A DNA stretch of 64,000 bases from an uncultured Ectothiorhodospiraceae bacterium (GTDB taxonomy: Bacteria; Pseudomonadota; Gammaproteobacteria; Nevskiales; Oceanococcaceae): contig CAKZQS010000040.1 of the NCBI GenBank assembly GCA_937141935.1, positions 124,001 through 188,000 of the forward strand, given 5' to 3'. Below the pieces are notes generated by a model. That model made no database searches. It was not told the origin of the DNA and saw nothing but the letters and a program-made list of their open reading frames with translations. Each line of letters begins with the position of its first letter. Within the stretch, counting starts at the first letter, position 1. The position numbers were made by a program, and so were the translations under genes. Shown piece by piece: positions 2,645 through 53,340 of the stretch.

Positions 2645-3205
2645 TCAGTTGCTCCTGTGGTCATGGGGAAGGCGCACGTCGCCGAACATCACGGCGACCC
2701 GCAAAGAGGTTTCGACGACCTGGCCGATCGTCTGCCCGCGCAGGGCGGCGAGCACCTTCACGCGGCGATGTAGATCCGCGGGCAGCTCGGTGTTCAGCCG
2801 CACCAGGCGGCCGTCCTTGTCGGGAAGCGGCTGCGTGCGCAGGCCGGCGGGCGCCGGCGGCTCCCGAAGCTGCGCCTCCATCTGGTTGAAGGCGTCGATG
2901 TAGGCCAGCTTGAACTGCAGCGCCCGCTTTCCGGTGAACCCCATTGCGAGCAGCGTGAAGCCGTCGCGGGTCAGGTGGTAGGCGGGGTAGGTCGCTACGC
3001 CGCCATTGGGCTGGCGGACTTCGATGGATGCCTGCGCAAAATTGCGCAGGTGCTGCTGCGGGAGGTCGGCGGTCAGGTTTCGGATTTGCCGGAGCACGTC
3101 GCGGTGCTCTTTGCCGAGGGCCTCGGCGACCTGGGTGCTGACGGTGACGGCGCGGCCGTCGATCAGGGAGACCAGCCCCGTCGGGGCGGATTGAATCTGC
3201 GACAT
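2645..3205 (-). CDS. rha: Rha-family phage regulatory protein fused to a ribbon-helix-helix segment
   Basis: 186 residues. Residues about 11-110 are a Rha domain: VSTQVAEALGKEHRDVLRQI, then YPAYHLTRDGFTLLAMGFTG and KRALQFKLAYIDAFNQME, the typical signature of phage Rha/antirepressor-type proteins. After a Pro-rich hinge (about 115-130), residues 133-172 (LVRLNTELPADLHRRVKVLA and the following helix) look like a ribbon-helix-helix DNA-binding unit with its beta strand and two helices. A Rha-RHH fusion would let the protein bind an operator directly. The start at 3205 has GAGG 7-10 bases upstream. A longer open frame upstream is dismissed for lack of coding character. It is the first gene of the leftward early operon. 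The family is clear. The RHH part is my reading of the pattern. Confidence 0.85.
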   Translation of the reverse strand: MSQIQSAPTGLVSLIDGRAVTVSTQVAEALGKEHRDVLRQIRNLTADLPQQHLRNFAQASIEVRQPNGGVATYPAYHLTRDGFTLLAMGFTGKRALQFKLAYIDAFNQMEAQLREPPAPAGLRTQPLPDKDGRLVRLNTELPADLHRRVKVLAALRGQTIGQVVETSLRVAVMFGDVRLPHDHRSN

Positions 3206-3243
3206 GGCAGTGTCCTCAGTCTGAACTTGAAGACCACCGCCAC

Positions 3244-3396
3244 GGGTTCCAATCCGAAAGGCGGTGGGCCAAACGGGGTTGGAACTACCGGACTGAGTAC
3301 GGCGCGCCGAAGCGCCCCCGCTGACCCACCATTGATCGGGCACAAAAAAGGCGCTGTAACGAGCGCCCGTGCGCTCAGTCTTCGGGGTTCCAATCC
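3244..3396 (-). repeat. 12-base direct repeat flanking the attenuator
   Basis: The minus-strand sequence GGATTGGAACCC occurs at 3396-3385 and again at 3255-3244, 141 bases apart, one copy before the terminator and the other about 40 bases before the rha start codon. Same orientation. In the first copy it can itself fold (GGG...CCC). The matching copies on either side of a terminator suggest protein or RNA recognition sites. The function is unknown. Confidence 0.6.
3344..3376 (-). terminator. Intrinsic terminator with a competing anti-terminator hairpin (leftward)
   Basis: On the minus strand, GGCGCT (3367-3362) pairs with AGCGCC (3355-3350) around a 6-base loop and is followed by TTTTTT (3349-3344), a standard rho-independent terminator. 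The GCGCTC in its left arm can instead pair with GAGCGC at 3376-3371 (loop ACGG), which would undo the terminator. Leftward transcripts from the control region would meet it before rha. Confidence 0.75.
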
Positions 3397-3424
3397 CGGC
3401 GCCGGAATTTGCCGGCGCGGAATC
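3344..3424 (-). ncRNA. Candidate small RNA or attenuated leader of the rha-recT operon
   Basis: Read on the minus strand, this roughly 75-80 base stretch holds a 7-bp hairpin (3400-3406 with 3413-3419, loop of 6), a possible small stem in the 12-base repeat, a GAGCGC/GCGCTC hairpin and finally the terminator. A TTGACA box at 3454-3449 lies at the right distance upstream, but the -10 region is weak. It could be a free-standing small RNA or the leader whose termination controls rha to recT. Inferred from structure only. Confidence 0.4.
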
Positions 3425-3509
3425 ATCGTGCACCGAAGGAAATTCGACTGTCAAGGCGTGACCCGGGGCCCCCACTCCGCTATCGTCGCGGGGGAGGGAG
3501 GAAGTCACC

Positions 3510-3789: not shown

Positions 3790-4533
3790 TCACGCCGCCA
3801 CCGGCCACTGCTTTTGCTCGCGGCCGGCCAGCAGGCAACCGCCTTTGTCGGCCGCGTTGCCGCCGTGCTGCTTGAACCAGAAGGCCACGCCGGCCGCGGC
3901 GCAAAGGTCCGCTAGCTCTACGGCCCAGGCCGGATCAAACGGCCGGCAGCCCGGGCCGCTCTCGCCGCCGCAGATGACCCAATCAATTCCGGTCAGGTCG
4001 ATGTCTGGCATGCGCTCGAGCATTGGCTCGACCGACAGGAATCGCACCGCCGCAGGAATTGCCCGCAGTGCGTCGATGCGCGGATAGCCGTAGGCGCGGT
4101 TCTCGACGGTCACGCCCAGCCACACATTCGGCATGTGCGCGTTGTGCAACCAGCTGACGGGCAGGCTCCGCTCAATGAGCGTGGCGCGCTTCGTCAGCAG
4201 CTGGAAATCCAGCCAGTCGCACCGCTCGATAATGTCGAACAGGCGCCCCCTGGCGCCGTGAGGCGCAGCGGTATCGCACCAGTCCATCATCGACCCGCAG
4301 AAGACGCGGCCGCGCTGCTGCGCCAGCCGGTGCTCCCGGTTCCAGCGCAGCGGCTTGTTCCAGTTCTGCTCGCTGGTCAGCCGCGGCGGCGTGCGCGGAT
4401 TCCAGTGATCGCCGCCGGTGCGCTTGTCCAGCGCCGCGGCGTAGCAGTTATCGCAGCCAGGCGCGATCTTCGCGCAACCCCACCACGGATTGAAGGTGTG
4501 GTCGGTCCAGCTGATTCCCGTTGTGTCGCCCAT
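3790..4533 (-). CDS. DUF5131 / phage Gp37-Gp68 family protein
   Basis: 247 residues. It matches the phage Gp37/Gp68 (DUF5131) family through the start ISWTDHTFNPWWGC, the cysteine set CAKIAPGCDNCYAAALDKR, the central LGVTVENR and the late VICGGESGPGCRPFD. The three-cysteine motif near the N-terminus resembles the iron-sulphur-binding arrangement of radical-SAM-like barrel proteins, which is a suggestion and not a demonstrated activity. A partner protein (the TcmP type found next to some relatives) is not seen here. The ATG at 4533 has AGGAG 8 bases upstream. Its promoter is the leftward arm of the 4581-4609 element, and the operator lies between promoter and gene, so it should be repressed in the lysogen. 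Confidence 0.85.
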   Translation of the reverse strand: MGDTTGISWTDHTFNPWWGCAKIAPGCDNCYAAALDKRTGGDHWNPRTPPRLTSEQNWNKPLRWNREHRLAQQRGRVFCGSMMDWCDTAAPHGARGRLFDIIERCDWLDFQLLTKRATLIERSLPVSWLHNAHMPNVWLGVTVENRAYGYPRIDALRAIPAAVRFLSVEPMLERMPDIDLTGIDWVICGGESGPGCRPFDPAWAVELADLCAAAGVAFWFKQHGGNAADKGGCLLAGREQKQWPVAA

Positions 4534-4563: not shown

Positions 4564-4577
4564 GTTAGCCGGCTAAC
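4564..4577. promoter_or_regulatory. Operator palindrome GTTAGCCGGCTAAC
   Basis: Perfect 14-base inverted repeat (GTTAGC-CG-GCTAAC), placed a few bases downstream of the leftward -10 box, where a bound repressor would block the DUF5131 transcript. A second perfect copy with a different centre (AC) lies at 53,014-53,027 at the other end of the prophage. Likely bound by one of the phage regulators (Cro-like, or one of the RHH proteins). Confidence 0.75.
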
Positions 4578-4580
4578 TGC

Positions 4581-4609
4581 ACCCTATGCCAGAAACTCAT
4601 CCAGCGCAA
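4581..4609 (-). promoter_or_regulatory. Leftward early promoter
   Basis: Read on the minus strand: -35 TTGCGC (4609-4604), 17-base spacer, -10 TAGGGT (4586-4581). It points to the DUF5131 gene. The -35 box is one arm of a 13-base palindrome that also supplies the -35 of the rightward promoter. Confidence 0.5.
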
Positions 4610-4610
4610 G

Positions 4611-4638
4611 TTGCGCAAAACGGTTAATGCACTTACAT
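4611..4638 (+). promoter_or_regulatory. Rightward early promoter
   Basis: -35 TTGCGC (4611-4616), 16-base spacer, -10 TTACAT (4633-4638). Transcription would start at or next to the ATG at 4646, implying a leaderless mRNA for the Cro-like gene. The two divergent -35 boxes form GCGCAA-G-TTGCGC, so polymerases cannot occupy both at once. Confidence 0.55.
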
Positions 4639-4645
4639 TCGGGTC

Positions 4646-4864
4646 ATGGCGAAGATGACGAAAGCGGATGCGATCGAGCTGCTGGGCGACGGAAACCTCA
4701 CCCGCGCCGCAACGAAGCTGGATTTGACGCATGGCGCCTTGAGTCAGTGGCCGGACGTGCTGGACACGACCCGAGCCGATCGCGTCCGGGGCGCTGCCGT
4801 GCGGCTCGGCCGGTTCATCCCCCCGCATCTGCGCCAGGAAGACGAAGACACCGCGGCGCTGTAG
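4646..4864 (+). CDS. Cro-like / YdaS-type helix-turn-helix repressor
   Basis: 72 residues, the usual size of phage Cro proteins. Residues about 4-40 carry a helix-turn-helix: ADAIELLGDGNLTRAATKLD followed by LTHGALSQWPD, close to the Cro/DicC/YdaS pattern (AIE.FG....A..LGI....SQW), then RADRVRGAAVRLGR as the last helix. First gene of the rightward early operon and divergent from DUF5131. No ribosome-binding site precedes it, and the -10 box ends 7 bases before the ATG, so translation is probably leaderless. No CI-type repressor is encoded opposite it, unlike lambdoid switches. It is a candidate ligand of the GTTAGC palindromes. Confidence 0.8.
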   Translation: MAKMTKADAIELLGDGNLTRAATKLDLTHGALSQWPDVLDTTRADRVRGAAVRLGRFIPPHLRQEDEDTAAL

Positions 4865-10447: not shown

Positions 10448-10728
10448 TTGCCCAGGCCTACCTGGCGGAGATTCGGGCGATGCGCTGCGTGCTGTGTACC
10501 GTCCTCGGCCAGGTGCAAGAGACCGTGACGCAGGCGCACCACCTGCGCGCGCCGGCCGGCGGCAGCCAGAAGTCCAGCGACTTTCTCGCGATTCCGCTGT
10601 GCCGCTGCTGTCACAAGGGCAAGCTCGGCATCCACGGCGACCGCACGCTGCTGCGCCTTGCACGCTGCGACGAGTTCGCGCTGCTGGCGCTGACCATTCA
10701 GGCCCGCTACCGGCAGCACGGTGCATAG
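10426..10728 (+). CDS. HNH-like / Ref-type recombination nuclease-like protein
   Basis: 100 residues. CVLC...AHHLRAP...IPLCRCCHKGKLGIHG is the layout of a small zinc-bound HNH-type nuclease of the phage Ref/NinX-like group: CxxC, HH, then CxxCH and a C-terminal His (GIHGDRTL). Ref from phage P1 is a RecA-dependent nuclease, and this protein shares its Cys/His order, but similarity is judged by eye. It sits in a NinR-like cluster with a RuvC-like resolvase downstream. It may help process recombination intermediates together with RecT and YqaJ. Confidence 0.65.
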   Translation: MAREVGVIAQAYLAEIRAMRCVLCTVLGQVQETVTQAHHLRAPAGGSQKSSDFLAIPLCRCCHKGKLGIHGDRTLLRLARCDEFALLALTIQARYRQHGA

Positions 10729-11023
10729 CGTGGCGATTCGTAGCCAGGCCCAAGAGCGGCGTCGAGAGCACAGCAATCGCGTGCTGGACGCCCTCATGGA
10801 TCTGGAGGCCGGCGCGCCGCGCAAGCGCCGCCGGGCCTTCACCACTGCGCAGATTGCGGGGCAGGCGGGGATCGCGAAATGGCGGGTCTACGCGATCCTG
10901 CTCTACCTCGAGCATCGCGGCCTGGTCGAGATCCAGCCGCGCCGGCAGGGCACGCCCAGCAATGCGCCGGCGCGCTACCGGCTCACCCGAACCAAGAAGG
11001 GGGGCGCGCCGCGTGGCCATTAA
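10721..11023 (+). CDS. Winged-helix DNA-binding protein
   Basis: 100 residues from a GTG at 10721 that overlaps the preceding stop (an alternative GTG is 10730). A winged helix is visible at about 35-95: FTTAQIAGQAGIAKWRVYAI as the helix-turn-helix with its recognition helix, then LLYLEHRGLVEIQ leading to an Arg-rich wing (PRRQGTPSNAPARYRLT). A basic N-terminus precedes it. Likely a regulator of early or late genes, or a DNA-binding accessory. The regulon is unknown. Confidence 0.7.
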   Translation: MHSVAIRSQAQERRREHSNRVLDALMDLEAGAPRKRRRAFTTAQIAGQAGIAKWRVYAILLYLEHRGLVEIQPRRQGTPSNAPARYRLTRTKKGGAPRGH

Positions 11024-38125: not shown

Positions 38126-41100
38126 ATGCAGAAAATTCGCTGGCACGGGCCGGTCGCGCAGCAGCAAGACGAGCCGCAGCAGCCCGCGGAGCAGCAGGGC
38201 CGGCGCGTGCAGTGGCACGGCCCGGTCATCGACAACGAGCCGGAAGGCATCGGCGCGCGCAGCAGCGAGGCCCTGGAGAAGGGTGCGAAGCAGACGCTGC
38301 AGAGCCTGCGCATGTCGCGGTTCGTCATGGCGGGGGATGAAGACCCGGCTCAGCTGGCCGCAGACCTCGAGCGCTCCATCCGGGAGCGGTCGGCGCGCGG
38401 CCGGGTGATGACCCGGGGGCAATACGAGACCCGGCGCGCGATCGGCGAGTTTGACGACAGCGAAGGGTTTGTCGACTCGGTGGTGGAGGGTGCGCAGGCG
38501 GTGGGCACGGCCCTGCGGCACGCGGATGACACGCTGGTGGGCACCGTCGAGCAGGCCCCGAACATGGTCCCGAGCCTCGTCGGTGCCGGCGTGGGGGCGG
38601 CCGGCGGCGCGAAGGTTGGGGCGCTGGGCGGCCCCAAGGGCGCAGCGGCTGGCGCAGCGGTCGGCGCGTATGCCGGCATGGCGGGAGGGACCGCTATCAC
38701 CGAGCTCGGCGCGGAGGTGGAAGAAACCATCCTCGAGCGCCTGGGCGAGCAAAACCTGCCGCCGACAGCCGGCAACATCGCCGCGCTGCTTTCAGATCCA
38801 GCCTTCATGTCGATGGCCCGGGCGCGGGGCCTGAAGAAGGGCGTGACCATCGCCGCCATCGACGCGGCCACGATGAAACTGTCCGGCCTGATCGCCACGC
38901 GGCCGAATCGCGTGGCAGCGCAGCGCCGCGACGACCTCGCCGGCGTGGAGCCGGAGGATGTTGTATCCGAGGTGCGCCCCAGCCTGGCCAACCAGGTCGC
39001 GCACTCCGGCGCGGCCGCGGCGGTGGATGTCGTGGGGGAGGGCGCGGGGGAGGCCGCCAGCCAATACGTCGCGCGCGGCGAGGTCAGCAAAGGCGAAGCG
39101 CTCGAGGAAGGCATCTACGGCCTGGGCTCGGCCGCCGTGGACACCACCATCGGCGCGCTGCTGGAGCGCATGCCGGCGCCCGACCGCCAGTGGACCGAGG
39201 CCCTGAACCAGAGCGGCCAGATCAACCCGAACCTGATTACCGTCCTGGCGGACACGGCCATGCGAGCGGGCGACCAGGCCGGCCCCGAGGGTGTGGGTCT
39301 CATCGCCGCGGTCGATGGCGCCGACGATGCGGAGCTGCAGCGGGTCTCGCCGCGCTACGCGAACCTGCGCCAGACGCTGAGCGAGGCTGCGGCCAAGGCG
39401 GCGCTGCGCACCGAGCTCGAGTACATCGCGTGGAGCGATGCTGAGCAGGCCCAGCGCGAGCGGCGCCGCGGTCCCGAGCCGCAGCAGGGTGGTGATGGGG
39501 AGCGCGCCCGGGCGGCTGATGAGCCGGCCATCGTGGGTGGCGCCCTGCCGATGCCGGGGGAGCCGGGCGCCGTGATTTCGCCCGCCGCGGATTCTGTGGC
39601 CGTGGATACCTCATCCGACGGTAAGCAGGCTAACGGCGGAAACGGTAGACTCCCCGGCGACGACGCAAGTGGAGGGCAATCCCTGCGGCGTATCGGAGAA
39701 GACCGGGAAACCATCGAGGGCGCGCAAAGCCCCGAGGAAGTAGCAACAAATGATGATCTGCAAGCCGACCGTTCCCTCCCTGACCCAGCTGCGGGTCGCG
39801 CAGGAAACGGAGGTGCTGACGATGGAGGAAGCCGTGGCGCTGTCGACGCTGGTGCCCAAGATGCGCCGCCGCGCCAAGAAACGGGGCCTGGAGGCCCTGC
39901 TGTCGACGGTGCCGAGCGAGTTGCGCGAGGCCTACGGCCGGCTCTGCCTTTTCGTGACGCCCCCGATCAGCCACGCGCTGCACTAGGCGACGACGAGCGC
40001 GCCCCAGACGCAGATGCGGGGCAGGAGTTCGCGCTCGAGCAGCAGACCGAGGCGAGCCGTCGCGCCGACGAGGACCGCGAGCAGCAGCGCCAGCAGGAAC
40101 TCGAGGCCGAAGGCGAGCGCGCTGAACAGATCCGCCGGAGTGAGGCTGAGGCCGATTCGTTCACGCTGAGCGGGTCCGAGGCCGAAGCGGACCAGGCGCG
40201 CGCCGCCGGGCAGAGCGACATCTTCGACGCCCTCGCGCAGGAGGCGGCCACGTCGCCCGCCAACGATCGGCCGGAGCCGACGCCGGCGCAAATCGAGGCT
40301 GGCAACTACCGCAAGGGCCATGCCGCGCTGCAGGGCCTGCAACTGTCGATCGAGAACCCCCGCGGTTCGACGCGCCGCGGGGTGGATGCCGGCGGCCGGG
40401 CCTGGGCGGTCGAAATGCGTGACCACTACGGCTACATCCGCGGCACCAAGGGGCGCGACAAGGAGCACATCGACGTGTTCGTGGGCGACTCCCCGGAGTC
40501 GGAGCGCGCGTGGGTGATCGACCAGGTCGACCCCGAGACCGGCGAGTTCGATGAGCACAAGGTCATGCTCGGCTACCGCAACCGTGCGGAGGCGCGGGAG
40601 GCCTACCGCCGCAACTACGCGCCGGGGTGGCGCGGCATGGGCGCCATCACAGAGGTGTCGGTGCCTGACCTGCGCAAGTGGCTGGAGAAGCCGCGTCGCG
40701 CGCCGATGGCGCGGCGCACGGCGGCGCAGCGCATGGACGATAAGCGCCTGTCGCTCGGTGACTACCGCGCGGATCTCGAGCGCATGAGCCGGGAGGGCGG
40801 GTGGTTGTCGGAGGGGGGGCACATCATCCGCGACCCGCGCACCGACGACGTCACGGGCCGGACGCCTTGGGTGCCGCGCGCCGAATGGTTCCCGGACGTC
40901 CAGCGCGCTGCGCGGCTGCCCAACAACCGCCACGGCAAGGCCACGCAAGAGGCCGCCGAGAAGGCGCTCGACGGCCGCCCGATGACCGCAGCTGAGCGCG
41001 AGCACGTCGCCCACATGCTGGACTACATCACCGAACTCGAGGAAGCGGCGACCGCGGCCGGCCTCAGCCCGCCGGATCCATTCGGCATGGCCGCGGACAT

Positions 41101-44100
41101 CGCGAGCGCCGAATACGACGACGAGGCGACGCCCTACAGCCCCGAGGACTATGCGCTGGTGGAGCGTGCCGAGGAACTGGACCCGGACGCATTTGAAACC
41201 GCGGCCAAGCAGTACGAGAATGACAGCGCAGGATTCCTGCGCGCCTTGCAGGAGATTGTCGATGGACAGCAAAGCGACGGACGACAGCCGGCTGCGCTGG
41301 AAGCCGGGCGACCAGACGGCGACCCGCGAGCAGAAGCGGGTGCGGCACCTGGTGAGCTACGCCCGACTGCGGCGGGCCCGGCGCCAAGCCCGGGCGGAAG
41401 CCGAGAAGGCGGGCGCGAAGCCCGCGACGCCGGCCAGCGTCGAGAAACTGAGCCAGGCCTGGGGCGCGACCGTCAAGCCGAGCCGCAAGAAGAAGTAGCG
41501 GAGCCGCGCGGCGTCGCGGCGGCGCCCGATGGAGGTGAGGCGCGGGCGCAGGAGCCCCTAGCGGCTCGATTCCCGCTCGACCTCGTTGAAAAGTCCTACG
41601 CTCATGTGAGCTCCAGCGGCCGCTACATGGCGGCCAGCGACCGGGACGAGTTCCTGTCGGAGGTTGAAAAATATCGAACGCGCCTCGAGCCGCTGGCCGA
41701 GACGCCTCAGCAGCGAGCGCTTCTCGATGAGCTGGCTGAGAAGTTCGCTGACGACTACCTCGGTTGGACCCGGCGACTCGCTGATAGCCGTTCGGGGGTG
41801 GTGAGCTCCCATATCGCTGGGCGCTCGAAGTTCAACTCTCGCCAGGCGCAGCGCCGCGGGAACGCGCTCGATCGAACTGTAAGTTCTTTCCTCAATTGGC
41901 TCCGCGCTGCGCGTCTGGACGGTGAGCACGCACTGCGCAAGATCAGAACCCCGGAGCAGCGCAGCCGGGATGCGGATCGCGCGAATATGGAAGCCTTCAA
42001 GAGCGCGCGAGCTGAGGTGCTTTCGAGCATTGATGCCGTGCGCGAAATTGATCGCGGCGAACTGCCCGGCATGGATCGATCGCTATTCAGTCAGTCCGCC
42101 GCGCGAAAGCTGCGCGGGTTGGTCGACAGCAACAAAGGCGATTGGGCGCGTCGGATTCTGACCGAAATTCGCGACACAGACGACGGCGGCCGGAAGGCTT
42201 TTACTGCGCGACATGGGATCTGGAAGCAGGTTGGTGTTGACCCCGATCCCCCGACACCCCCTGGCGAAGCGTCGCGTGACGAGGGGGCCGACCCGTCGCC
42301 GACTGAGAACGCCGATGGGCCGCAGCCCGAAGCCGGCCAGGCCGAAGGCGCAGCAGCACAGAAGCGCCGGCGGCGCCGGGCAACCATCGACACGGAGGAA
42401 TCCTTCGCACTCATCCACGAGGAAGTCCGGTACGGGGGGATCAGCGCGACCAAGTTCAAGGACGCCTTCTCGTCGCTGATCGAGAATGGCGAGGCCATCC
42501 GCGCCGACCTGAACAAGATGACCAAGGCTCAGCTCCTGAGCCGGCTGGGGCCCATGGGGCGGGCGCGCTACAAGAACGAGCGCAAGGCCACGATCGTCGG
42601 TGTGGTGCTGGAGGCGATGCACGAGACGTTTGCGCTGGGCCGCGAATATGGGCCGCGGTCCTTCATGCACGGGCAGTACGACGACTACCAGCAGAAGAAG
42701 GCCGAGGCCCTGCGCGCCCTCGTTGACGGCACCACCGACGAAATGCTGCAGCAGCACGCTGCAGAGAACGCGGAGCGTTTTGCCGAGACCAAGGCGCGGG
42801 TCGAACAGTTCAAGCAGGCCGTGTCGGATCCGAAGACCGTTGACGACTACCGCGACTACCGGCGGTACATGCTGGGCGAGGGCAAGACCGACCGCGAGCT
42901 GCGGCTGTCGCTGCCGGCCGACCGCCGGGCGGAATTCGATCGCAGCCTGGCGGAGCAAAGCCGGCGTGCGCGCGCTGACCGCAAGGAGCAGCAGCAGACG
43001 ACGGTCAGCACCGCCGGCGAGACGGTGGGCGCTGAAATCGTGGAAACGAAGCACGCCCGGGACGGCCACGATTTGTTCGTGGTGAAGCTCGAGGACCGGG
43101 TCAGCCGCGAGGACTTCCAGACGTTGCGCCAGAGCGCCAAGCGGATGGGCGGCTACTACTCGCGCTTCCGGGGCAATGGCGCCGTGCCCGGCTTCCAGTT
43201 CCGCGAGCGGCACCAGGCTGAGGCCTTCGCTGCGCTCGCCGGTGGCGATGCCACACAGGCGCAGCAGGCCGCCAAAGAGCGTCGCAGCGTCTACGAGGAC
43301 GACCGTAGCCAGTCGGCCGTGCAGCGGCTGCGGGCGATGGCTGAGCGGCTGCAGGGCGATGCTGACGAGGCACTGTCCGCCGATCGCAAGCAGAACACCT
43401 CACGGCGGGCGGCGATGGCGGCGCGGGCGGAAGAACGCGCACGCACGCAGCAGGCGCTGGCCGAAACGATGACCCGCATTGCCGACGCAATCGAGGACGG
43501 CCGCGCCGAGTTCCTGGACCGGTTGCGCGAGAAAGGGCAGGTCGAGCTGCTGGAGAACCAGCTGCGACTGGCGCATGCGACCGAGGCCTTTGAGAAGTCG
43601 GAGAACTACGGCAAGCAGCTGGAGTTCCAGGCGGCGCCGATGACGCCCGACACTGCGGACTTCGCCGAGTGGCCGCGGTTCGGCGGCTACCGTTCGCACC
43701 TGGCCGAGCTCGCGCGCGAGTTGGTGCAGATCGACGGCACCAAAGCGCTCGGGCAGAAGCTGCTCAAGGGCGCGGACGATGTCTCGAAGGCCTACGAGCG
43801 GTGGGCGAAGACGCAGCTGCACAAGGTTTCGCTGGCCACGGCCGACGGTGCGCCGGCCCGGTTCAGCAGCAAGGCGGCGGCAGAAGGCGCTATCCGCCGC
43901 AGCAACATGCGTGGCAAGGCCATTGTGCTGCAGGTCAAGCGCGGCCAGAACGCCGTCGTCCTCAGCCCGTCCGAGGCCATCGGCCGGGGCCTGTGGAAGG
44001 GCGACGGCGACGCCCGCTTGGTGTTGTCCGACGAGCTTGGCATGGCGCTGGCCGAGAAGATCGGCCGCGCGCAGCGCCGGGGGCGCTCCATTGTCGGCGG

Positions 44101-47100
44101 CTGGCAGTTCGAGAACGTGGCCAGCACCCGCAAGGCCCTGTCCCGCATGGGCATCGAAACCGCCGAGGAATTTCGGGCAGCGCTTCGCGAGTTCCAGGCC
44201 CTGCGCCAGGCGCCCGCCAAGGCTGACCGCGTGCGTGAGCTCGAGCGGTCGATGGTTGGGCGGAAGAACGATGGCCTCGACTTCTTCCCCACGCCGGCGG
44301 GTGTGGCTGACGAAATGGTGCAGACCGCCGAGCTCACGGCGGAAATGACCGTGCTCGAGCCGTCCGCCGGGTGGGGGCACATTGCCGAGCGGATCCGCGC
44401 CGCCGGCGTCGAGCCGGACGTCGTGGAATTCTCGCCCGAGCGGCGCGAGCTGCTTGAGGCAAAGGGCTTCGCTGTGCTCGAGGTCAACGACTTCCTCATG
44501 CTGGGCGGCGGGCCTTCCCAAGAGGTCAAGGATGCGCTTGCAGAAGTGCAAGACGATCTCGACAAGGCCAACGCCGCTTACGTTGAAGAATCGAATTCGC
44601 CACGCGGTGCCGACAGAACGAAGCTGCGGCGCTTGAAGGAGAAGGCTGACGACCTAGCTGCGCGCCGCGCTGAGCTGAAAAAGTCGGCCAACCGCGCGCG
44701 TGACTTTTACACCTACGGCGACACGTTCCGCGACCCTCACGGTAACGAGGGGATCATGCGTGGGTTGGGCGGCATGGGTAGCGATCGCGTGCGGATCGTG
44801 ACGGCAGAAGGCCGGGAGATCTACAACAACCGCAGCGACCTCACGCCCGTCCGAAAGAACAACGGAAGCGGATACGACCGCATCGTGATGAACCCGCCAT
44901 TCAGCGACGGCCGGGACATTGACCATGTGCGCCACGCCTTCAGCCTGCTCAAGCCCGGCGGACGCATCGTCGCCATCATGGGCGAGGGCGCCTTCTACCG
45001 ATCGGACGCCAAGGCCGCAGCCTTCCGCGAGTGGCTGGAAACCGTGGAGGGCACCAGCGAGAAGCTGGACGAGGGGACATTTCTCGACCCCTCGCTGCCC
45101 GTCACGACTGGCGTGCACGCCCGGATGGTGGTTGTGGACAAGCCCACGGCCCTTGAGACCCGGACGGAGGGCGGTGGTAGCAACGTGTTCCGCCGTTTCG
45201 ATCTAGGCGACTCACCCGCCACGCCGGAGCAGGCGTATTCAGATGCCGTCGCGTTGACCGGAATTGACATCGGGCTCGCTGTGGAGCCGTACGCGGATTC
45301 GGCGGCGGCGGATGTGCCGGCCTACTTCGACCCGGATAAGCGAGTCATCCGGGTCAACACTGCGGTCGCCCGCACCCGGTCGGAAGCGGCGATGGACATG
45401 GCCGAGGAGATTCTGCACGCAGTCGATTCGCTCAGCGGCAAGCCGGTGTACCGCACGATCAGCAGTGGCTCCACCCTCCTGGCCAAGGGCGGAGGAGTGC
45501 GGCGCGAGGTCGAGGCTCACTATGCGGGCGACGGGGAGTTGGCAGCGTGGGTTCGCTATCCGATTGGCAGTCTGGACCTGTCTGAGTCACGCACCAAAGC
45601 GGAGCTTTTCGCACGGCTCGGTGTGCTGTATTTTGGAGACCCGGACCATATGCGGGCGTCCTTGCCCAAGGCCTACGAGGTATTCGATGGATCCTTCCTT
45701 TTCCTCACAGAAAATCCGCTCGGTGAGTCGCGCGTACTACGACAAGTTCGGGAAAGAGGCCTACAGCAAGGCGCCGCACCGGTTCGTGTGCGGATACCAC
45801 CACGGCCCGATGGCGCTGGTCGCCAAGATGGAGGAAGCCCTGGAGGCAGGCCAGCCAGTGGAGGACTGGATGCCCTTCGTCGCCGAATTGCAGAAAGGCT
45901 CGTTGCGCCCCGACGCGGTGGCGTAGTTCAGTTCTCGCGGCGCCCGGTATCGGCGCCGCAGCGGGGGGACGAGAAGCGCCTGGATCTGCGCGGCCTGCGC
46001 CGCCTGCTGAGCGAGCAATTTGGCGCCGAGACCATTGAGGGCCTGGTCCGCAACGGCGTCCTGACGATTGTCGATACGGCCGACCGGCTGCCGCCAAGTC
46101 TCGGCGTGCCGCATGATACCAATGCGGAAGGCCTATACCTCGAAGGCGAAGTGTTCCTCATCGCGTCGAACATCGCCCCAGCGCGCGCCGGCGCGGTGCT
46201 GCTGCACGAAGTGGGCGAGCACTACGGGCTGCGGACGGTGCTTGGTGAGAAGGGCTACACGGCGCTGCTGAAAGAGGTTCGGGCCTACTACAAGTCCGGC
46301 AGCCGGGCCTTTACGACGGCGTGGCACCGGGTCCGCGAGGAAGAGCCTGGCCTGGCCGAGGAATCTGACGCCTTCGCTCAGGAGGTTTTGGCCCGGGTGG
46401 GCGAGACCGCATCCGGCCACAAGCTGTCGATCTGGCGCCGCCTCGTGGCGGCGGTGAAGGCCTGGCTCATCAAGACGCTGGGCTTCGCCAAGGGCATCAC
46501 CGACGACGATGTGCGCGCCTTCGTGGTCAGCAGCCTGCGCCGCGCGGCCGGCGGCCCGGCCCGGCACATGGGCGCAGGGCTCATCATGCGCGCCAGCCGC
46601 CAGCCGGCGATCTGGTATTCGCAGATGGCCCGGTATCTCGCCGACAACCTGCCGCGGCGCGGCCCGGGGAAGATGGTTGCGCAGATGGTTCGCGCTTTCC
46701 TCAGCAGGGCGGAGTTCCAGGGCGTGGACGCTGAAGCCGCGCCGCTGGTGCAATGGCTGGAAGGCCAGGAGACCGTGACCCGCGAGGAAGTGCTCGACTT
46801 CCTTGAGTCGACAGAGCAGCAGATGTTCAGCCGCAGGAGGCTGACAGCCTTTGAAAATGACGCGCCGGGTGCAACGGGTGCAGCGTCTGTTGCGGCCCGC
46901 GCTACGCAGTCCGTCCCTACACCTAATCGAGGCGACCTGGGAGCCGGCGCGCGCGAGGATCGTGCCACTACGGGGGAGTCAAGGCAAGCCGGCCGGCCCA
47001 ACCCCGACATTCGCTACAGCCGCCCGCCGAAGGGCGACGGCAAGCACAGCCCGGAGTTTGAGGCCGAGGCCTGGCGCAAGGCCGGCATGCCCCCGGACGA

Positions 47101-49621
47101 CCGCGGCCCGCTGGCGCGTGCCCTGGACGCCATGCGCGCCCACGGCGAGCGCGTCCGGGAAGAATTCATCGACCAGTTCACCACCGGCATGTTTGATCGG
47201 TTCCGGCCGATCAAGGACGCCGAGGGTGCGGTGACGCCTGAGCGGTCGGGCTACATCGCGGCGCGGCTCAGTACGGGGTCGGAATCGGTGCTGTACGGCA
47301 TGCTGATGCACGGCGCGCCGCAGCTACGGGACGGGATCATCCAGAAGAAGGAGGGCAGCCGCGGGCTGCTGCAGATCCTTCAGCCGGTGGCGCAAGACCT
47401 GAACCGCTGGGCCGCCTGGATGGTCGGCATGCGCGCCTACCGGCTCGCCGGGCAGCAGCGGGAGAACAACCTGACGCTGCCGGAAATCGCCTACCTGCGG
47501 GGCCTGGCCGGCGACCAACGGGATGCCTTCGAGGCGGTGGCTACGGACCTGCGCGCGTACATGACCGACGTGCTGCAGCTGATGGCGGATTCCGGCTTGC
47601 TGGATCAGGCGGCCGTGGCCAAGTTCAGCGAGGATCGGTACTACCTGCCGTTCTATCGGGTGCAGGAGGATCCTGGCAGGGACCGCAGCTTCGACCCCGA
47701 AGCCGTGGTCCGCCCGTTCAAGAAGCGCGGCCTCTCGCACCAGGACAGCGGCATCAAGCGCCTACGGGGCGGCCGGCTCGCGATCAACGACCCGATCGAG
47801 AACCTGTTTGCCCACCTGAGCCGGGCCGTCGACGCCAGCATGAAGAATCACGCGCTCGGCATGGTGGTGGCGAATGTGTGGCCGCAGCTGGCGCTACCGA
47901 CGGAAGGGGACCGGAAGCGGGTCATCCGCCTCATGCAGGACGGCAAGCCGGTGCAGTTCACAGTGGCTGACCCCGTGCTGTTTGAGGCCCTGTCCGCCGT
48001 TGGCGAGCAGCCCAACCGCGGATTCGCGATCGACACCATGCGCGGAGCGCGCCGGCTGCTGACGACCTTGGTGACGGCCGAGCCCGCCTTCATGGTCCGC
48101 AACTTCATGCGCGATGCCCTGCACGCCTGGCTGATCGACAAAAACAGCTTCACGCTCGGCGTCGACTCGGTGCGCGGTGCGGCCGCCACCTTGCGCACCC
48201 TGCGCTCCCACGTCGGCGACAACGAAGACGCGGCGGATCCGCGCGTTGTGTCGATGATGTTCGCAGGCGCCTCGTTCATCGGTGGCTACACCTACGGCGG
48301 CGACCCGGCCAAGAATGCGGCGGCCCTGCGAAAGGCGCTGCGGCGCAAAGGGATGCCGGCCACCAAGGTCGAGCAGTACATCAAGACCTTGGTCGGCACC
48401 CCTGCGCAGATGATGTCGCTCTACCTGGAAGTCGGCGAGGCGCTGGAGAACGCGAACCGGGTCGGCACGATGCAGTCGGCGCTCGACGCCGGGGCTTCCA
48501 TGAAGCATGCCGTGTTTGAGTCCAAAGACTTCATGGACTTCAGCCTGCGCGGCAAGTGGGCGGTGGTGCAGTGGCTGGCCGACACGGTGCCGTTCATCAA
48601 TGCGCGGCTGCAGGGCCTGTACAAGCTCGGCCGCGAGGCGCGGCGCGACCCCAAGGTGATGGCGCTCATCAACCGGCGCATGGCGCTGTATGGGTCCATG
48701 GTCGGCCTGGCGTCTATTGCACTGGTGGCCAGCAACAGCGGCGAGGACTGGTACGAAGAACTGCCGGAGTGGGACAAGGACGCGAACTGGCACGTGAAGG
48801 TCGGCGGCATCCACTACCGCATCCCCAAGCCCTTCGAGCTCGGCATCGTGTTCGGCACGGTACCGGAGCGCAGCTACCGGCTATTTGCTGGCCACGATGG
48901 CGTGGGCGAGAGCGTGCGCAGCGGCGTGCACGCCGTGACCGGCACCCTGGCAATCAACCCGGTGCCGCAGCTGGCGCTGCCCGCGGCGGAAGTGATTGCG
49001 AACTACGATTTTTTCCGTAAGCGGCCGATCGAATCGTTCTCCGACGAGGGCCTGCTGCCCGGCGCGCGGTCCAGCGTGCACACGTCGCCGATCATGGTCG
49101 AAGTCGGCGAGGCCATCGGCGTGTCGCCCAAGAAGCTCGAGCACCTGTGGAATGGCTACCTGGGCACGCTGGGCGGCTATGCGCTGACCACGTCGGATGC
49201 GCTGCTGTGGGCCGCGACATCGGATGTAGCGCGGCCTGCGATGCGCGTGGACGACATGATTGTGCTCAAGAGCTTCGTCCGTACCGGCGTGCCGTGGTCC
49301 ACCGAGTTCCAGGAGGAGCTGTACCAGTACGCCAAGGAGGCGGAGCAGACCTACCGCACCATCAACGAATACCTGGAGCGGGGCAAAGAGGCCAAGGCCG
49401 ATGCCCTGGAGCAGGACAACCAGGCGCTGCTGAACTGGCGTCGCGACTTCCGGCGGGCGACCCGGGATTTGGCGGACCTTCGCGGCGACCGTGACGCCGT
49501 GCTGCTGGACCCCGATATGACGGCGGCCGTGAAGCGCACGCAGCTCGATGAGATCCAGCGCCAGATCAACGCGATCGCCAAGGATACGGTCGAGGGTTTC
49601 GAGGCGGAGCGGCGTCAGTAG
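38126..49621 (+). CDS. Giant polyvalent virion protein (3,831 aa)
   Basis: One open frame of 3,831 residues. Domains by rough residue: 1-60 with the motif WHGPV twice; about 148-190 a glycine-zipper segment (SLVGAGVGAAGGAKVGALGG); 430-630 low-complexity linker; 632-700 coiled coil; 724-860 the 'inorganic pyrophosphatase'-like domain of polyvalent proteins (RDHYGYIRGTKGRDKEHIDV, FDEHKVMLGYRNRAEAREAY); 860-1045 helices; 1046-1125 linker; 1150-1375 a helical domain; 1415-2040 coiled coils; 2045-2350 an N6-adenine-type methyltransferase (LEPSAGWGH at 2077-2085, NPPF at 2256-2259, with a charged insertion between); 2370-2520 peptidase-like with EEILHA; 2521-2605 linker; 2630-2860 zinc peptidase with HEVGEH at 2694-2699; 2960-3831 a C-terminal block resembling LPD38, with a hydrophobic helix near 3520. 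Polyvalent proteins are injected with phage DNA and act in the host cell. Third positions weaken where small genes are nested. Confidence 0.85.
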   Translation: MQKIRWHGPVAQQQDEPQQPAEQQGRRVQWHGPVIDNEPEGIGARSSEALEKGAKQTLQSLRMSRFVMAGDEDPAQLAADLERSIRERSARGRVMTRGQYETRRAIGEFDDSEGFVDSVVEGAQAVGTALRHADDTLVGTVEQAPNMVPSLVGAGVGAAGGAKVGALGGPKGAAAGAAVGAYAGMAGGTAITELGAEVEETILERLGEQNLPPTAGNIAALLSDPAFMSMARARGLKKGVTIAAIDAATMKLSGLIATRPNRVAAQRRDDLAGVEPEDVVSEVRPSLANQVAHSGAAAAVDVVGEGAGEAASQYVARGEVSKGEALEEGIYGLGSAAVDTTIGALLERMPAPDRQWTEALNQSGQINPNLITVLADTAMRAGDQAGPEGVGLIAAVDGADDAELQRVSPRYANLRQTLSEAAAKAALRTELEYIAWSDAEQAQRERRRGPEPQQGGDGERARAADEPAIVGGALPMPGEPGAVISPAADSVAVDTSSDGKQANGGNGRLPGDDASGGQSLRRIGEDRETIEGAQSPEEVATNDDLQADRSLPDPAAGRAGNGGADDGGSRGAVDAGAQDAPPRQETGPGGPAVDGAERVARGLRPALPFRDAPDQPRAALGDDERAPDADAGQEFALEQQTEASRRADEDREQQRQQELEAEGERAEQIRRSEAEADSFTLSGSEAEADQARAAGQSDIFDALAQEAATSPANDRPEPTPAQIEAGNYRKGHAALQGLQLSIENPRGSTRRGVDAGGRAWAVEMRDHYGYIRGTKGRDKEHIDVFVGDSPESERAWVIDQVDPETGEFDEHKVMLGYRNRAEAREAYRRNYAPGWRGMGAITEVSVPDLRKWLEKPRRAPMARRTAAQRMDDKRLSLGDYRADLERMSREGGWLSEGGHIIRDPRTDDVTGRTPWVPRAEWFPDVQRAARLPNNRHGKATQEAAEKALDGRPMTAAEREHVAHMLDYITELEEAATAAGLSPPDPFGMAADIASAEYDDEATPYSPEDYALVERAEELDPDAFETAAKQYENDSAGFLRALQEIVDGQQSDGRQPAALEAGRPDGDPRAEAGAAPGELRPTAAGPAPSPGGSREGGREARDAGQRRETEPGLGRDRQAEPQEEVAEPRGVAAAPDGGEARAQEPLAARFPLDLVEKSYAHVSSSGRYMAASDRDEFLSEVEKYRTRLEPLAETPQQRALLDELAEKFADDYLGWTRRLADSRSGVVSSHIAGRSKFNSRQAQRRGNALDRTVSSFLNWLRAARLDGEHALRKIRTPEQRSRDADRANMEAFKSARAEVLSSIDAVREIDRGELPGMDRSLFSQSAARKLRGLVDSNKGDWARRILTEIRDTDDGGRKAFTARHGIWKQVGVDPDPPTPPGEASRDEGADPSPTENADGPQPEAGQAEGAAAQKRRRRRATIDTEESFALIHEEVRYGGISATKFKDAFSSLIENGEAIRADLNKMTKAQLLSRLGPMGRARYKNERKATIVGVVLEAMHETFALGREYGPRSFMHGQYDDYQQKKAEALRALVDGTTDEMLQQHAAENAERFAETKARVEQFKQAVSDPKTVDDYRDYRRYMLGEGKTDRELRLSLPADRRAEFDRSLAEQSRRARADRKEQQQTTVSTAGETVGAEIVETKHARDGHDLFVVKLEDRVSREDFQTLRQSAKRMGGYYSRFRGNGAVPGFQFRERHQAEAFAALAGGDATQAQQAAKERRSVYEDDRSQSAVQRLRAMAERLQGDADEALSADRKQNTSRRAAMAARAEERARTQQALAETMTRIADAIEDGRAEFLDRLREKGQVELLENQLRLAHATEAFEKSENYGKQLEFQAAPMTPDTADFAEWPRFGGYRSHLAELARELVQIDGTKALGQKLLKGADDVSKAYERWAKTQLHKVSLATADGAPARFSSKAAAEGAIRRSNMRGKAIVLQVKRGQNAVVLSPSEAIGRGLWKGDGDARLVLSDELGMALAEKIGRAQRRGRSIVGGWQFENVASTRKALSRMGIETAEEFRAALREFQALRQAPAKADRVRELERSMVGRKNDGLDFFPTPAGVADEMVQTAELTAEMTVLEPSAGWGHIAERIRAAGVEPDVVEFSPERRELLEAKGFAVLEVNDFLMLGGGPSQEVKDALAEVQDDLDKANAAYVEESNSPRGADRTKLRRLKEKADDLAARRAELKKSANRARDFYTYGDTFRDPHGNEGIMRGLGGMGSDRVRIVTAEGREIYNNRSDLTPVRKNNGSGYDRIVMNPPFSDGRDIDHVRHAFSLLKPGGRIVAIMGEGAFYRSDAKAAAFREWLETVEGTSEKLDEGTFLDPSLPVTTGVHARMVVVDKPTALETRTEGGGSNVFRRFDLGDSPATPEQAYSDAVALTGIDIGLAVEPYADSAAADVPAYFDPDKRVIRVNTAVARTRSEAAMDMAEEILHAVDSLSGKPVYRTISSGSTLLAKGGGVRREVEAHYAGDGELAAWVRYPIGSLDLSESRTKAELFARLGVLYFGDPDHMRASLPKAYEVFDGSFLFLTENPLGESRVLRQVRERGLQQGAAPVRVRIPPRPDGAGRQDGGSPGGRPASGGLDALRRRIAERLVAPRRGGVVQFSRRPVSAPQRGDEKRLDLRGLRRLLSEQFGAETIEGLVRNGVLTIVDTADRLPPSLGVPHDTNAEGLYLEGEVFLIASNIAPARAGAVLLHEVGEHYGLRTVLGEKGYTALLKEVRAYYKSGSRAFTTAWHRVREEEPGLAEESDAFAQEVLARVGETASGHKLSIWRRLVAAVKAWLIKTLGFAKGITDDDVRAFVVSSLRRAAGGPARHMGAGLIMRASRQPAIWYSQMARYLADNLPRRGPGKMVAQMVRAFLSRAEFQGVDAEAAPLVQWLEGQETVTREEVLDFLESTEQQMFSRRRLTAFENDAPGATGAASVAARATQSVPTPNRGDLGAGAREDRATTGESRQAGRPNPDIRYSRPPKGDGKHSPEFEAEAWRKAGMPPDDRGPLARALDAMRAHGERVREEFIDQFTTGMFDRFRPIKDAEGAVTPERSGYIAARLSTGSESVLYGMLMHGAPQLRDGIIQKKEGSRGLLQILQPVAQDLNRWAAWMVGMRAYRLAGQQRENNLTLPEIAYLRGLAGDQRDAFEAVATDLRAYMTDVLQLMADSGLLDQAAVAKFSEDRYYLPFYRVQEDPGRDRSFDPEAVVRPFKKRGLSHQDSGIKRLRGGRLAINDPIENLFAHLSRAVDASMKNHALGMVVANVWPQLALPTEGDRKRVIRLMQDGKPVQFTVADPVLFEALSAVGEQPNRGFAIDTMRGARRLLTTLVTAEPAFMVRNFMRDALHAWLIDKNSFTLGVDSVRGAAATLRTLRSHVGDNEDAADPRVVSMMFAGASFIGGYTYGGDPAKNAAALRKALRRKGMPATKVEQYIKTLVGTPAQMMSLYLEVGEALENANRVGTMQSALDAGASMKHAVFESKDFMDFSLRGKWAVVQWLADTVPFINARLQGLYKLGREARRDPKVMALINRRMALYGSMVGLASIALVASNSGEDWYEELPEWDKDANWHVKVGGIHYRIPKPFELGIVFGTVPERSYRLFAGHDGVGESVRSGVHAVTGTLAINPVPQLALPAAEVIANYDFFRKRPIESFSDEGLLPGARSSVHTSPIMVEVGEAIGVSPKKLEHLWNGYLGTLGGYALTTSDALLWAATSDVARPAMRVDDMIVLKSFVRTGVPWSTEFQEELYQYAKEAEQTYRTINEYLERGKEAKADALEQDNQALLNWRRDFRRATRDLADLRGDRDAVLLDPDMTAAVKRTQLDEIQRQINAIAKDTVEGFEAERRQ
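39621..39634. promoter_or_regulatory. Operator-like sequence GTAAGCAGGCTAAC upstream of nested gene A
   Basis: Differs in one base from the GTTAGC-NN-GCTAAC palindrome found twice elsewhere, and lies 116 bases before nested gene A. With one mismatch the match could be chance in a 64-kb window (about 0.1 expected). Still, its place ahead of a small independent gene is suggestive. A possible -10 box TAGACT follows at 39,646-39,651, with no good -35. Confidence 0.3.
39750..39986 (+). CDS. Nested gene A within the giant protein gene (78 aa)
   Basis: In the frame one base ahead of the giant frame. GAGGAAG lies 9 bases before an ATG ATG start. 73 of 78 codons end in G or C, while the giant frame over the same bases has many A/T endings and encodes only Gly/Ala/Asp linker sequence (residues 542-621). 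The product (VPSLTQLRVAQETEVLTMEE, VALSTLVPKMRRRAKKRGLE) is a basic helical protein of unknown family. Coding is therefore primarily in this frame. It is a good candidate for an independently made small protein. Confidence 0.75.
   Translation: MMICKPTVPSLTQLRVAQETEVLTMEEAVALSTLVPKMRRRAKKRGLEALLSTVPSELREAYGRLCLFVTPPISHALH
41262..41498 (+). CDS. Nested gene B within the giant protein gene (78 aa)
   Basis: Same frame offset as nested gene A. AGGAG 7 bases before the ATG, a very good site, and about 73 of 78 codons end in G or C. The product is basic and helical (LRWKPGDQTATREQKRVRHL, VSYARLRRARRQARAEAEKA) and ends in SRKKK, suiting nucleic-acid binding. The giant frame here (residues 1046-1125) is Pro/Gly/Arg/Glu linker with weak codon usage. 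Family unknown. Confidence 0.75.
   Translation: MDSKATDDSRLRWKPGDQTATREQKRVRHLVSYARLRRARRQARAEAEKAGAKPATPASVEKLSQAWGATVKPSRKKK
45687..45926 (+). CDS. Nested gene C within the giant protein gene (79 aa)
   Basis: Again in the same offset frame. GAGG with 6-base spacing precedes the ATG. Codon usage in this frame is good (about 66 of 79 end in G/C), while the giant frame (residues 2521-2601) reads Arg/Gly/Pro linker. The product contains YYDKFGKEAYSKAPHRF, VCGYHHGPMALVAKMEEAL, a helix and a Trp-containing C-terminus (EDWMPFVAELQKGSLRPD). A small soluble protein with paired His, of unknown family. Confidence 0.75.
   Translation: MDPSFSSQKIRSVSRAYYDKFGKEAYSKAPHRFVCGYHHGPMALVAKMEEALEAGQPVEDWMPFVAELQKGSLRPDAVA
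46851..47234 (+). pseudogene. Possible nested gene D (start region only) in the giant protein gene
   Basis: The same offset frame has an AGGAGG box (46,835-46,840) 10 bases before a TTG (46,851), or an ATG at 46,857. The first 45 codons have fair G/C endings and encode a basic helix (RRVQRVQRLLRPALRSPSLH), while the giant frame over the same stretch is linker. After about 46,990 codon usage moves back to the giant frame and the open frame continues only as a shadow to 47,234. It may be a decayed or truncated nested gene. Confidence 0.25.
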
Positions 49622-52704: not shown

Positions 52705-52959
52705 CTAGTCGTCGTCTTCGTGCAGACCCAACCGGCGCATGTCCGGGGTGATGCGCTCGATCTTTTCCTCGATCGCCTGCTCGAGCATTTCTTTCATCGT
52801 GAGTCCGTGGGCGTAGGCCCAGCCCTTCCAGATGCGGTGCTTTCGGCGGCTGATGTTCGCCTGCACCCTTACGCTGTCGTCCCCTGTGGTCCCCGGTTGG
52901 TTCAGCCGGGGCGGCCGTTTGTAGCCACCAGACGCGCGCGCGTCTTGCTCTTTCGACAT
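52705..52959 (-). CDS. Ribbon-helix-helix regulator at the right end of the prophage
   Basis: 84 residues. Start at the ATG at 52,959, preceded by AAGGAG at good spacing (an in-frame ATG at 52,980 overlaps that site). The N-terminal arm is basic (GYKRPPRLNQPG) and residues 29-66 (DSVRVQANISRRKHRIWKGW then AYAHGLTMKEMLEQAIEEKI) fit the RHH pattern: a strand, helix A and helix B with TMKEM, like plasmid CopG/ParG proteins. Transcribed leftward, convergent with the barrel gene (1 base apart). The palindrome GTTAGCACGCTAAC is 55-68 bases upstream of its start and may be an autoregulatory operator shared with the left-end control region. Confidence 0.7.
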   Translation of the reverse strand: MSKEQDARASGGYKRPPRLNQPGTTGDDSVRVQANISRRKHRIWKGWAYAHGLTMKEMLEQAIEEKIERITPDMRRLGLHEDDD

Positions 52960-53013: not shown

Positions 53014-53027
53014 GTTAGCACGCTAAC
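53014..53027. promoter_or_regulatory. Operator palindrome GTTAGCACGCTAAC
   Basis: Perfect 14-base palindrome upstream of the RHH gene, the same GTTAGC-NN-GCTAAC as at 4,564-4,577. A leftward promoter (TTGCAA read from about 53,053, and a TTAGT-type -10 next to the palindrome) is possible, so the operator would overlap the start of transcription, as at the other copy. Confidence 0.75.
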
Positions 53028-53244: not shown

Positions 53245-53287
53245 CGGATTTTGAATCCGGCGCGTCTACCAGTTCCGCCACTCCGGC
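53245..53287 (-). tRNA. 5' half of tRNA-Leu(CAA), cut at the anticodon stem: attachment site
   Basis: Read on the minus strand from 53,287: acceptor strand GCCGGAG, D-arm with GCG/CGC stem and AACTGGTAGA loop, then CCGGA-TTCAAAA-TCCG, an anticodon arm with anticodon CAA (leucine). After TCCG the expected G is an A and the remainder (variable arm, T-arm, acceptor) is missing, replaced by phage DNA. So the phage integrated at the anticodon stem, and the 3' half is at the far prophage end outside this window. The fragment cannot make a tRNA. Confidence 0.85.
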
Positions 53288-53340
53288 ACGGGGCGCGCAG
53301 TCTACCAATGGCCCGCGGAAACCGGTAGCCTTCGCGCGCC

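What the first reader, a model, noticed from the sequence alone, without database searches (positions are those of the whole stretch)
4564..4577. Same perfect operator palindrome at both ends of the prophage, without a CI repressor
GTTAGC-NN-GCTAAC occurs perfectly at 4,564-4,577 and 53,014-53,027. A 12-base fixed match is expected about 0.004 times by chance in 64 kb. One sits next to the Cro-like/DUF5131 promoters, the other next to an RHH gene at the right end. No CI or LexA-like repressor is seen. The repressor of this prophage may be an RHH protein or the Cro-like protein acting on distant operators, a different logic from the lambda switch.
Basis: partly seen in the sequence, partly recalled or inferred. 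Interest (0 to 1): 0.7.

Follow-up and report, generated by a model that had tools for sequence, protein, structure and literature searches.

The report
Twin operators of a CI-less prophage
A viral genome sleeping in a marine-type gammaproteobacterium carries the same 14-base mirror-image DNA switch in front of two of its control genes, lacks the usual CI repressor, and instead combines a small ribbon-helix-helix protein with an antirepressor silenced by a known antisense RNA; this is a plausible but untested alternative way for a virus to stay dormant.

Summary
GTTAGC-NN-GCTAAC occurs perfectly at 4564-4577 and 53014-53027 and nowhere else in the 3.57-Mb genome. It is the only recurrent palindrome in the prophage's noncoding DNA (about 0.001 by simulation after look-elsewhere correction). 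One correction: the prophage runs from about window -10,552 to 53,289, so the left copy is not at its end. It lies in the divergent DUF5131/Cro-like promoter region, over the predicted start of the leftward transcript. The right copy is 55 bp upstream of a small ribbon-helix-helix (RHH) gene beside attR. No CI-type gene was found anywhere in the prophage. The palindrome is not the host LexA site.

A sister phage (G450) has the same set: no CI detected, C4-type RNA, Rha fused to an RHH domain, and an RHH gene beside attP. Another relative (G457) has a CI and none of these.

Best reading: both sites are operators of the RHH protein. That it replaces CI is plausible but unproven; the operator pair is not conserved in G450.

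The parts
4564..4577 (.). left operator GTTAGCCGGCTAAC; covers the predicted start of the leftward DUF5131 transcript
   Evidence: exact match; only two copies in the genome; promoter geometry
53014..53027 (.). right operator GTTAGCACGCTAAC; 55-68 bp upstream of the RHH start codon
   Evidence: exact match; sequence
52705..52959 (-). small RHH protein (84 aa), best candidate binder; core SVRVQANIS..GLTMKEMLEQAIEEKI
   Evidence: phmmer to omega repressor 2bnw E=0.011; Pfam Omega_Repress E=0.08, below cut-off; AlphaFold monomer shows the two helices only
4581..4609 (-). predicted leftward promoter TTGCGC-17-TAGGGT; left operator begins 3 nt after its -10
   Evidence: sequence reading; the strict consensus scan did not flag it
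4611..4639 (+). predicted Cro-like promoter TTGCGC-17-TACATT, start site at or next to the ATG
   Evidence: sequence reading; not flagged by the strict scan
4604..4616 (.). second, different perfect palindrome GCGCAA-G-TTGCGC over both -35 boxes; candidate Cro operator
   Evidence: single copy in the prophage
4646..4864 (+). Cro-like protein (72 aa, P22_Cro/DicC-like)
   Evidence: PHROG 409 E=7e-6; P22_Cro E=5e-4
3790..4533 (-). DUF5131 (phage Gp37/Gp68-type) gene under the left operator
   Evidence: PF07505 E=1e-74
3425..3454 (-). predicted isrK promoter TTGACA-18-CACGAT
   Evidence: its start site matches the 5' end of the isrK match
3344..3418 (-). isrK small RNA with a1/b1 targets of C4 and a terminator
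   Evidence: Rfam RF01394 60.7 bits; c4-a1b1 33.7 bits, below its gathering score; terminator
3257..3336 (-). C4 antisense RNA
   Evidence: Rfam RF01695 53.4 bits, E=1.8e-7; GTTCCAA and CTCAGTC complementary to isrK and to the Rha leader
3206..3256 (-). Rha leader with a2/b2 copies; b2 (GACTGAG) abuts the ribosome site
2645..3205 (-). Rha antirepressor-type protein with a C-terminal RHH-like domain (186 aa)
   Evidence: PF09669 E=4e-28; DUF2274/ParD RHH-type hits to residues 122-170 below cut-off
53245..53289 (.). attR core (5' part of tRNA-Leu(CAA), next to queA); the other copy is L003:9448-9492

Best explanation
The two palindromes are operators of one prophage-encoded repressor, most likely the small RHH protein encoded at 52705-52959. 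Bound at 53014-53027 it would limit its own synthesis; bound at 4564-4577 it would block the leftward early (DUF5131) promoter at its start site. It works inside an immunity system without CI: the Rha-RHH antirepressor gene is held silent in the lysogen by the C4 antisense RNA, whose target sequences are duplicated in isrK and at the Rha ribosome site, and release of Rha would inactivate the repressor. Shown: sites, uniqueness, gene order, absence of detectable CI, C4/isrK cassette and its pairing motifs. Inferred: RHH binding, autoregulation, Rha acting on RHH, and the RHH protein being the main lysogeny repressor. What shuts off the rightward Cro-like promoter is not explained by these two sites.
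For: Exactly two copies in the genome, both in promoter regions of this prophage, look-elsewhere p about 0.001. The left copy starts 3 nt after the -10 of the leftward promoter and the right copy is 55 bp upstream of the RHH gene, both usual repressor positions. The Cro-like promoter has its own different palindrome, so a second regulator is needed for GTTAGC. No S24/HTH_3 gene in the prophage. The protein aligns to the RHH core of the omega repressor. C4 and isrK upstream of Rha, with 7-nt motifs complementary to both isrK and the Rha leader. Sister phage G450 (terminase 65%, portal 51%, capsid 60% identical) also has no HTH_3 match, a C4-type RNA before a Rha-RHH gene, and an RHH gene directly beside attP/int with a perfect palindrome 50 bp upstream of its start. 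Relative G457 has an S24 CI repressor, no C4, and no such RHH gene.
Against: No binding data. The RHH assignment is weak by sequence (E=0.011) and AlphaFold gave no ribbon, which may reflect modelling a monomer. The RHH protein has no detectable homologue in phages, plasmids, IMG/VR, GTDB genomes or relatives, so the operator cannot be traced by covariation. In G450 the palindrome upstream of the RHH gene is single-copy and differs from the palindromes of its Cro-like region, so the shared operator pair is not conserved. The left site lies 34 bp from the -35 of the Cro-like promoter and would not block it directly.
Confidence: 0.5

Rival explanations
1. The Cro-like protein binds both palindromes: in lytic growth it shuts off the DUF5131 promoter next door and the RHH gene 48 kb away, as lambda Cro shuts off CI synthesis.
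For: The left site lies in the Cro-like gene's own divergent promoter region. A 14-bp even palindrome also suits a helix-turn-helix dimer (general knowledge).
Against: Another perfect palindrome, GCGCAA-G-TTGCGC, sits on the -35 box of the Cro-like promoter itself, the expected Cro autoregulation site. The GTTAGC site is about 70 bp from the Cro-like start.
Confidence: 0.17
2. The Rha-RHH protein binds the palindromes through its C-terminal RHH domain, acting as a transcription regulator rather than a protein-protein antirepressor.
For: Its C-terminus gives RHH-type hits and resembles the attP-linked RHH protein of G450.
Against: No palindrome lies at the Rha gene's own promoter. C4 control means the protein is absent in the lysogen, so it could act only after induction. 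Predicted DNA-contact residues differ from those of the small RHH protein (R-N-E against R-Q-N, my alignment by eye).
Confidence: 0.1
3. A different protein binds: the winged-helix protein at 10721-11023, a host regulator, or an unrecognised prophage repressor.
For: The winged-helix gene exists (TrmB E=4e-6), and many left-arm genes have no family.
Against: A host regulator would be expected to have sites elsewhere, but the genome has only these two. The host LexA site is the ordinary CTGTN8ACAG seen upstream of lexA. The winged-helix gene has no copy of the palindrome near it.
Confidence: 0.15
4. The two copies are a chance pair or a mobile palindromic repeat with no regulatory role.
For: Short palindromes recur in GC-rich DNA: 17 recurrent families in the whole prophage, nearly all GC-rich. 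The same 16-mer occurs in unrelated viral contigs, once as a dispersed repeat within genes.
Against: Two copies in the whole genome, both intergenic, both just upstream of genes; 4 of 3,000 simulations.
Confidence: 0.06

Closest known systems
P1/P7 immI (C4 antisense RNA controlling ant)
   Same: C4 RNA upstream of an antirepressor-family gene; paired target motifs duplicated before C4 and at the antirepressor ribosome site
   Different: P1/P7 have a C1 repressor (general knowledge); none found here. The target gene is a Rha-RHH fusion.
Salmonella Gifsy-1 isrK-orf45-anrP operon (PMC4825925)
   Same: isrK RNA with terminator at the head of an antirepressor operon, promoter just upstream
   Different: No AntQ gene identified upstream here; the gene upstream is DUF5131 with its own operator.
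P22 immI (Mnt, Arc, sar, Ant; PMC11016777)
   Same: RHH regulators plus antisense RNA around an antirepressor gene
   Different: In P22 the RHH proteins control ant and the C2 repressor keeps lysogeny. Here the RHH gene lies at the other end of the prophage and no C2-like gene was found.
SSV1 F55 (PMC5569661)
   Same: A small RHH protein that keeps lysogeny by binding over transcription starts of early genes and at its own promoter; closest functional model
   Different: Archaeal virus, tandem-repeat sites rather than a perfect palindrome; no homology tested.
Lambda/P22 CI-Cro immC
   Same: Divergent promoters with a Cro-like gene and palindromic sites
   Different: The CI position is taken by DUF5131; no CI in the prophage.
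Temperate phages with the same structural module (G457/G044 prophage; F116-like Pseudomonas phages)
   Same: Portal and capsid homologues, giant late ORF in G457
   Different: G457 has an S24 CI repressor and no C4 or attP-linked RHH gene.

Membership tests
Lambda-type CI/Cro immunity region | CI-type repressor (HTH, usually S24 domain) | tested here: not met
   no PF00717 or PF01381 match in C40:113448-177289
Lambda-type CI/Cro immunity region | Cro-like gene divergent from a leftward promoter with operators between | tested here: met
C4/immI antirepressor control | C4 RNA above the Rfam gathering score upstream of an antirepressor gene | tested here: met
   RF01695 53.4 bits against 45; Rha PF09669 4e-28
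C4/immI antirepressor control | motifs complementary to C4 both upstream of it and at the antirepressor leader | tested here: met
   GTTCCAA and CTCAGTC against isrK and the Rha leader
C4/immI antirepressor control | C4 processed from the transcript and silencing the gene | not testable with these tools
   needs RNA-seq or reporters
RHH transcription repressors (Arc/MetJ/omega type) | RHH sequence core (strand then two helices) | tested here: inconclusive
   omega repressor E=0.011; Pfam below cut-off; AlphaFold helices only
RHH transcription repressors (Arc/MetJ/omega type) | palindrome upstream of its own gene (autoregulation) | tested here: met
   53014-53027, 55 bp upstream; binding not tested
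Host LexA/SOS regulon | host LexA box sequence | tested here: not met
   host lexA is preceded by CTGTGAATAATAACAG; no exact CTGTN8ACAG in the prophage
RHH lysogeny repressor (SSV1 F55-like function) | binds early promoters and maintains lysogeny | not testable with these tools
   experiment needed

The most novel reading that the evidence does not exclude
A lineage of temperate podovirus-like phages has replaced CI by a small RHH repressor encoded directly beside attP. The antirepressor that inactivates it is a Rha protein carrying its own RHH domain, kept silent by C4 RNA, and acting by forming mixed RHH dimers or competing for the operators. int and the RHH gene are adjacent and codirectional in the free phage but separated by integration.
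Probability: 0.2. Interest if true: 0.75.

Novelty: new variant of a known kind. Interest (0 to 1): 0.5.

Why it matters
Many prophages have no recognisable CI gene, and what keeps them dormant is usually unknown. This one offers a concrete, small and testable candidate: one 84-residue protein, two identical operators and a known antisense-RNA cassette. If confirmed, it would give a bacterial counterpart to the archaeal RHH lysogeny repressor F55, identify what a C4-controlled Rha protein acts on when there is no CI, and provide a search rule (an RHH gene beside attP, Rha-RHH fusion, C4 RNA) for repressors in other CI-less phages.

Tried and rejected
Homologues of the RHH protein: none in IMG/VR, phage records, plasmids, GTDB contigs or 146 relatives; weak class-level hits lay mostly in frames of unrelated genes. 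The IMG/VR and GTDB scans rely on exact short peptides and miss distant relatives. Palindrome as the host LexA box: rejected. Searching the 16-base extended palindrome in IMG/VR gave 49 unrelated stretches, none with an RHH, Cro or Rha relative nearby. AlphaFold of the RHH protein alone and with one relative: low confidence, no strand; fold search gave nothing. Relatives of the Cro-like protein in G028 stand next to XRE-type genes, while the one in G003 lies beside a resolvase and a winged-helix gene, so Cro-like position alone is not informative. G458 shares capsid and portal but has none of the regulators. The palindromes of G450's Cro-like region are not shared with its RHH gene.

Full report
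Observation. GTTAGC-NN-GCTAAC is present perfectly at 4564-4577 and 53014-53027. A search of the whole genome, of which the window is C40:124001-188000, found exactly these two copies; base composition predicts 0.09 per genome and 0.0016 per prophage. To allow for having picked this palindrome after the fact, I listed all perfect 6-bp-arm palindromes in the prophage's noncoding DNA (1,918 bases in 17 segments, by my own gene list): this is the only one that recurs, and a recurrent palindrome appeared in 4 of 3,000 simulated sets. The copies also agree in one base on each side.

Boundaries. The sequence left of the window shows an intact tRNA-Leu(CAA), followed by an integrase and an excisionase. 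A 45-bp repeat of the tRNA occurs at L003:9448-9492 and window 53245-53289, so the prophage is about 63.8 kb and ends next to queA. The left palindrome is therefore about 15 kb inside the prophage, at the divergent early promoters; only the right one is near an end.

Promoter anatomy (sequence reading; a strict consensus scan flagged none). Two TTGCGC -35 boxes stand back to back in a second perfect palindrome, GCGCAA-G-TTGCGC (4604-4616). Rightward: TTGCGC-17-TACATT, start at the Cro-like ATG. Leftward: TTGCGC-17-TAGGGT, with the GTTAGC palindrome starting 3 nt after the -10, over the start site of the DUF5131 transcript. The right palindrome lies 55-68 bp upstream of the RHH start codon (52959). 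The two different palindromes point to two different regulators.

No CI. Peptidase_S24 and HTH_3 searches of the whole genome gave no match in the prophage. Pfam and PHROG scans of the left-arm and early proteins found integrase, excisionase, a Rha protein, a P22-Cro-like protein, DUF5131, Thg1, and replication proteins, but no CI. DNA-binding candidates are the Cro-like protein, a small winged-helix protein (10721-11023), Rha with a C-terminal RHH-like domain, and the right-end RHH protein. The last aligns to the omega repressor (E=0.011), but its family scores are below cut-offs and AlphaFold did not build the ribbon, so the RHH assignment is probable rather than shown.

What was missed. Rfam finds isrK (3344-3418) and the C4 antisense RNA (3257-3336) directly upstream of the Rha gene. 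C4 carries GTTCCAA and CTCAGTC; their complements occur both in isrK and in the Rha leader, the second next to the Rha ribosome site. This is the target duplication known from P1/P7 C4 (general knowledge; the review PMC12197685 describes C4 acting on ant mRNA), with isrK at the head as in Gifsy-1 (PMC4825925). C4-family RNAs precede Rha genes in several other viral contigs, so the cassette is a known kind.

Not the host SOS site. The host lexA gene is preceded by the ordinary box CTGTGAATAATAACAG, unlike the palindrome, and the prophage has no exact CTGTN8ACAG.

Comparison with relatives. G450 (IMG/VR, 67 kb) is a sister phage: terminase 65%, portal 51%, capsid 60%, exonuclease 54% identical, plus a Rha-RHH gene and a Cro-like gene. 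It has no HTH_3 match, a C4-type RNA before Rha-RHH (sRNA-Xcc1), and, at the end of the late region beside int and a tRNA-like attP region, a leftward gene for a protein with two RHH-like stretches. In the circular form of our phage, int, attP and the RHH gene would have this same order and direction. The G450 RHH gene has a perfect palindrome (ACGTTG-N6-CAACGT) 50 bp upstream of its start, like the 55 bp here, but that palindrome is single-copy and is not in its Cro-like region, which has two other palindromes. By contrast G457, with the same structural module, has a CI with an S24 domain, no C4 RNA and no attP-linked RHH gene. Thus absence of detectable CI, presence of C4-Rha-RHH and presence of an RHH gene at attP go together in two phages against one; this is suggestive, not statistical. 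The Rha C-terminal domain resembles the attP-linked RHH protein of G450 (single-pair BLASTP E=5e-5), though not detectably our own RHH protein.

Mechanism. Most likely the RHH protein is autoregulated at 53014-53027 and represses the leftward early promoter at 4564-4577, while C4 keeps the Rha-RHH antirepressor silent. Whether it is the master repressor is open, because the left site does not cover the Cro-like promoter. The closest functional model is F55 of the archaeal virus SSV1, an RHH protein that maintains lysogeny by binding over start sites of early genes and its own promoter (PMC5569661). P22 immI combines RHH regulators, antisense RNA and antirepressor, but with a C2 repressor (PMC11016777).

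Host. The sister fragment L036 (G003, same family as this genome) is a contig of an Oceanococcus MAG, so the host belongs to or near the Oceanococcaceae, Gammaproteobacteria.

Verdict. The system is a new variant of known kinds: an immI-type C4/isrK/Rha cassette, Cro-like divergent promoters, and a candidate RHH repressor in a prophage in which no CI was found. All steps that involve protein binding are inferred.

Noticed in passing
L003:13586-14422 (-), about 6 kb left of the window: A Thg1-type tRNA-His guanylyltransferase gene in the phage left arm with a DnaJ-like zinc motif at its C-terminus.
   Followed up: no
window 38126-49621: A single 3,831-codon late ORF; homologues in G450 (5,054 aa) and G457 (4,739 aa), as in phages with giant ejected proteins.
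   Followed up: partly
L003:9404-9490 and window 53245-53289: Integration in tRNA-Leu(CAA) upstream of queA leaves the 5' part of the tRNA at attR and an intact tRNA at attL, so the phage supplies the 5' half.
   Followed up: partly
window 4634-4655: The predicted Cro-like promoter puts the transcript start at the ATG, so that mRNA may be leaderless; homologues in L037/L038 start at the second ATG (MTK).
   Followed up: no
G450 (L138) 3880-4112: Direct repeat GTCAAGGTTTGGTCAAGAT on both sides of a tRNA-like stretch, and three TTGGCCAGGA copies between int and the RHH gene; probably attP arm sites.
   Followed up: no
L184 355, 9993, 11124: An unrelated viral contig has three copies of GGTTAGCCGGCTAACT, some in reading frames encoding VSRLTD-like peptides: a dispersed palindromic repeat.
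   Followed up: no
L042 (host contig C10:18546-19364): The host carries a separate CI-like repressor (HTH plus S24) elsewhere in its genome, in a different contig from this prophage.
   Followed up: no
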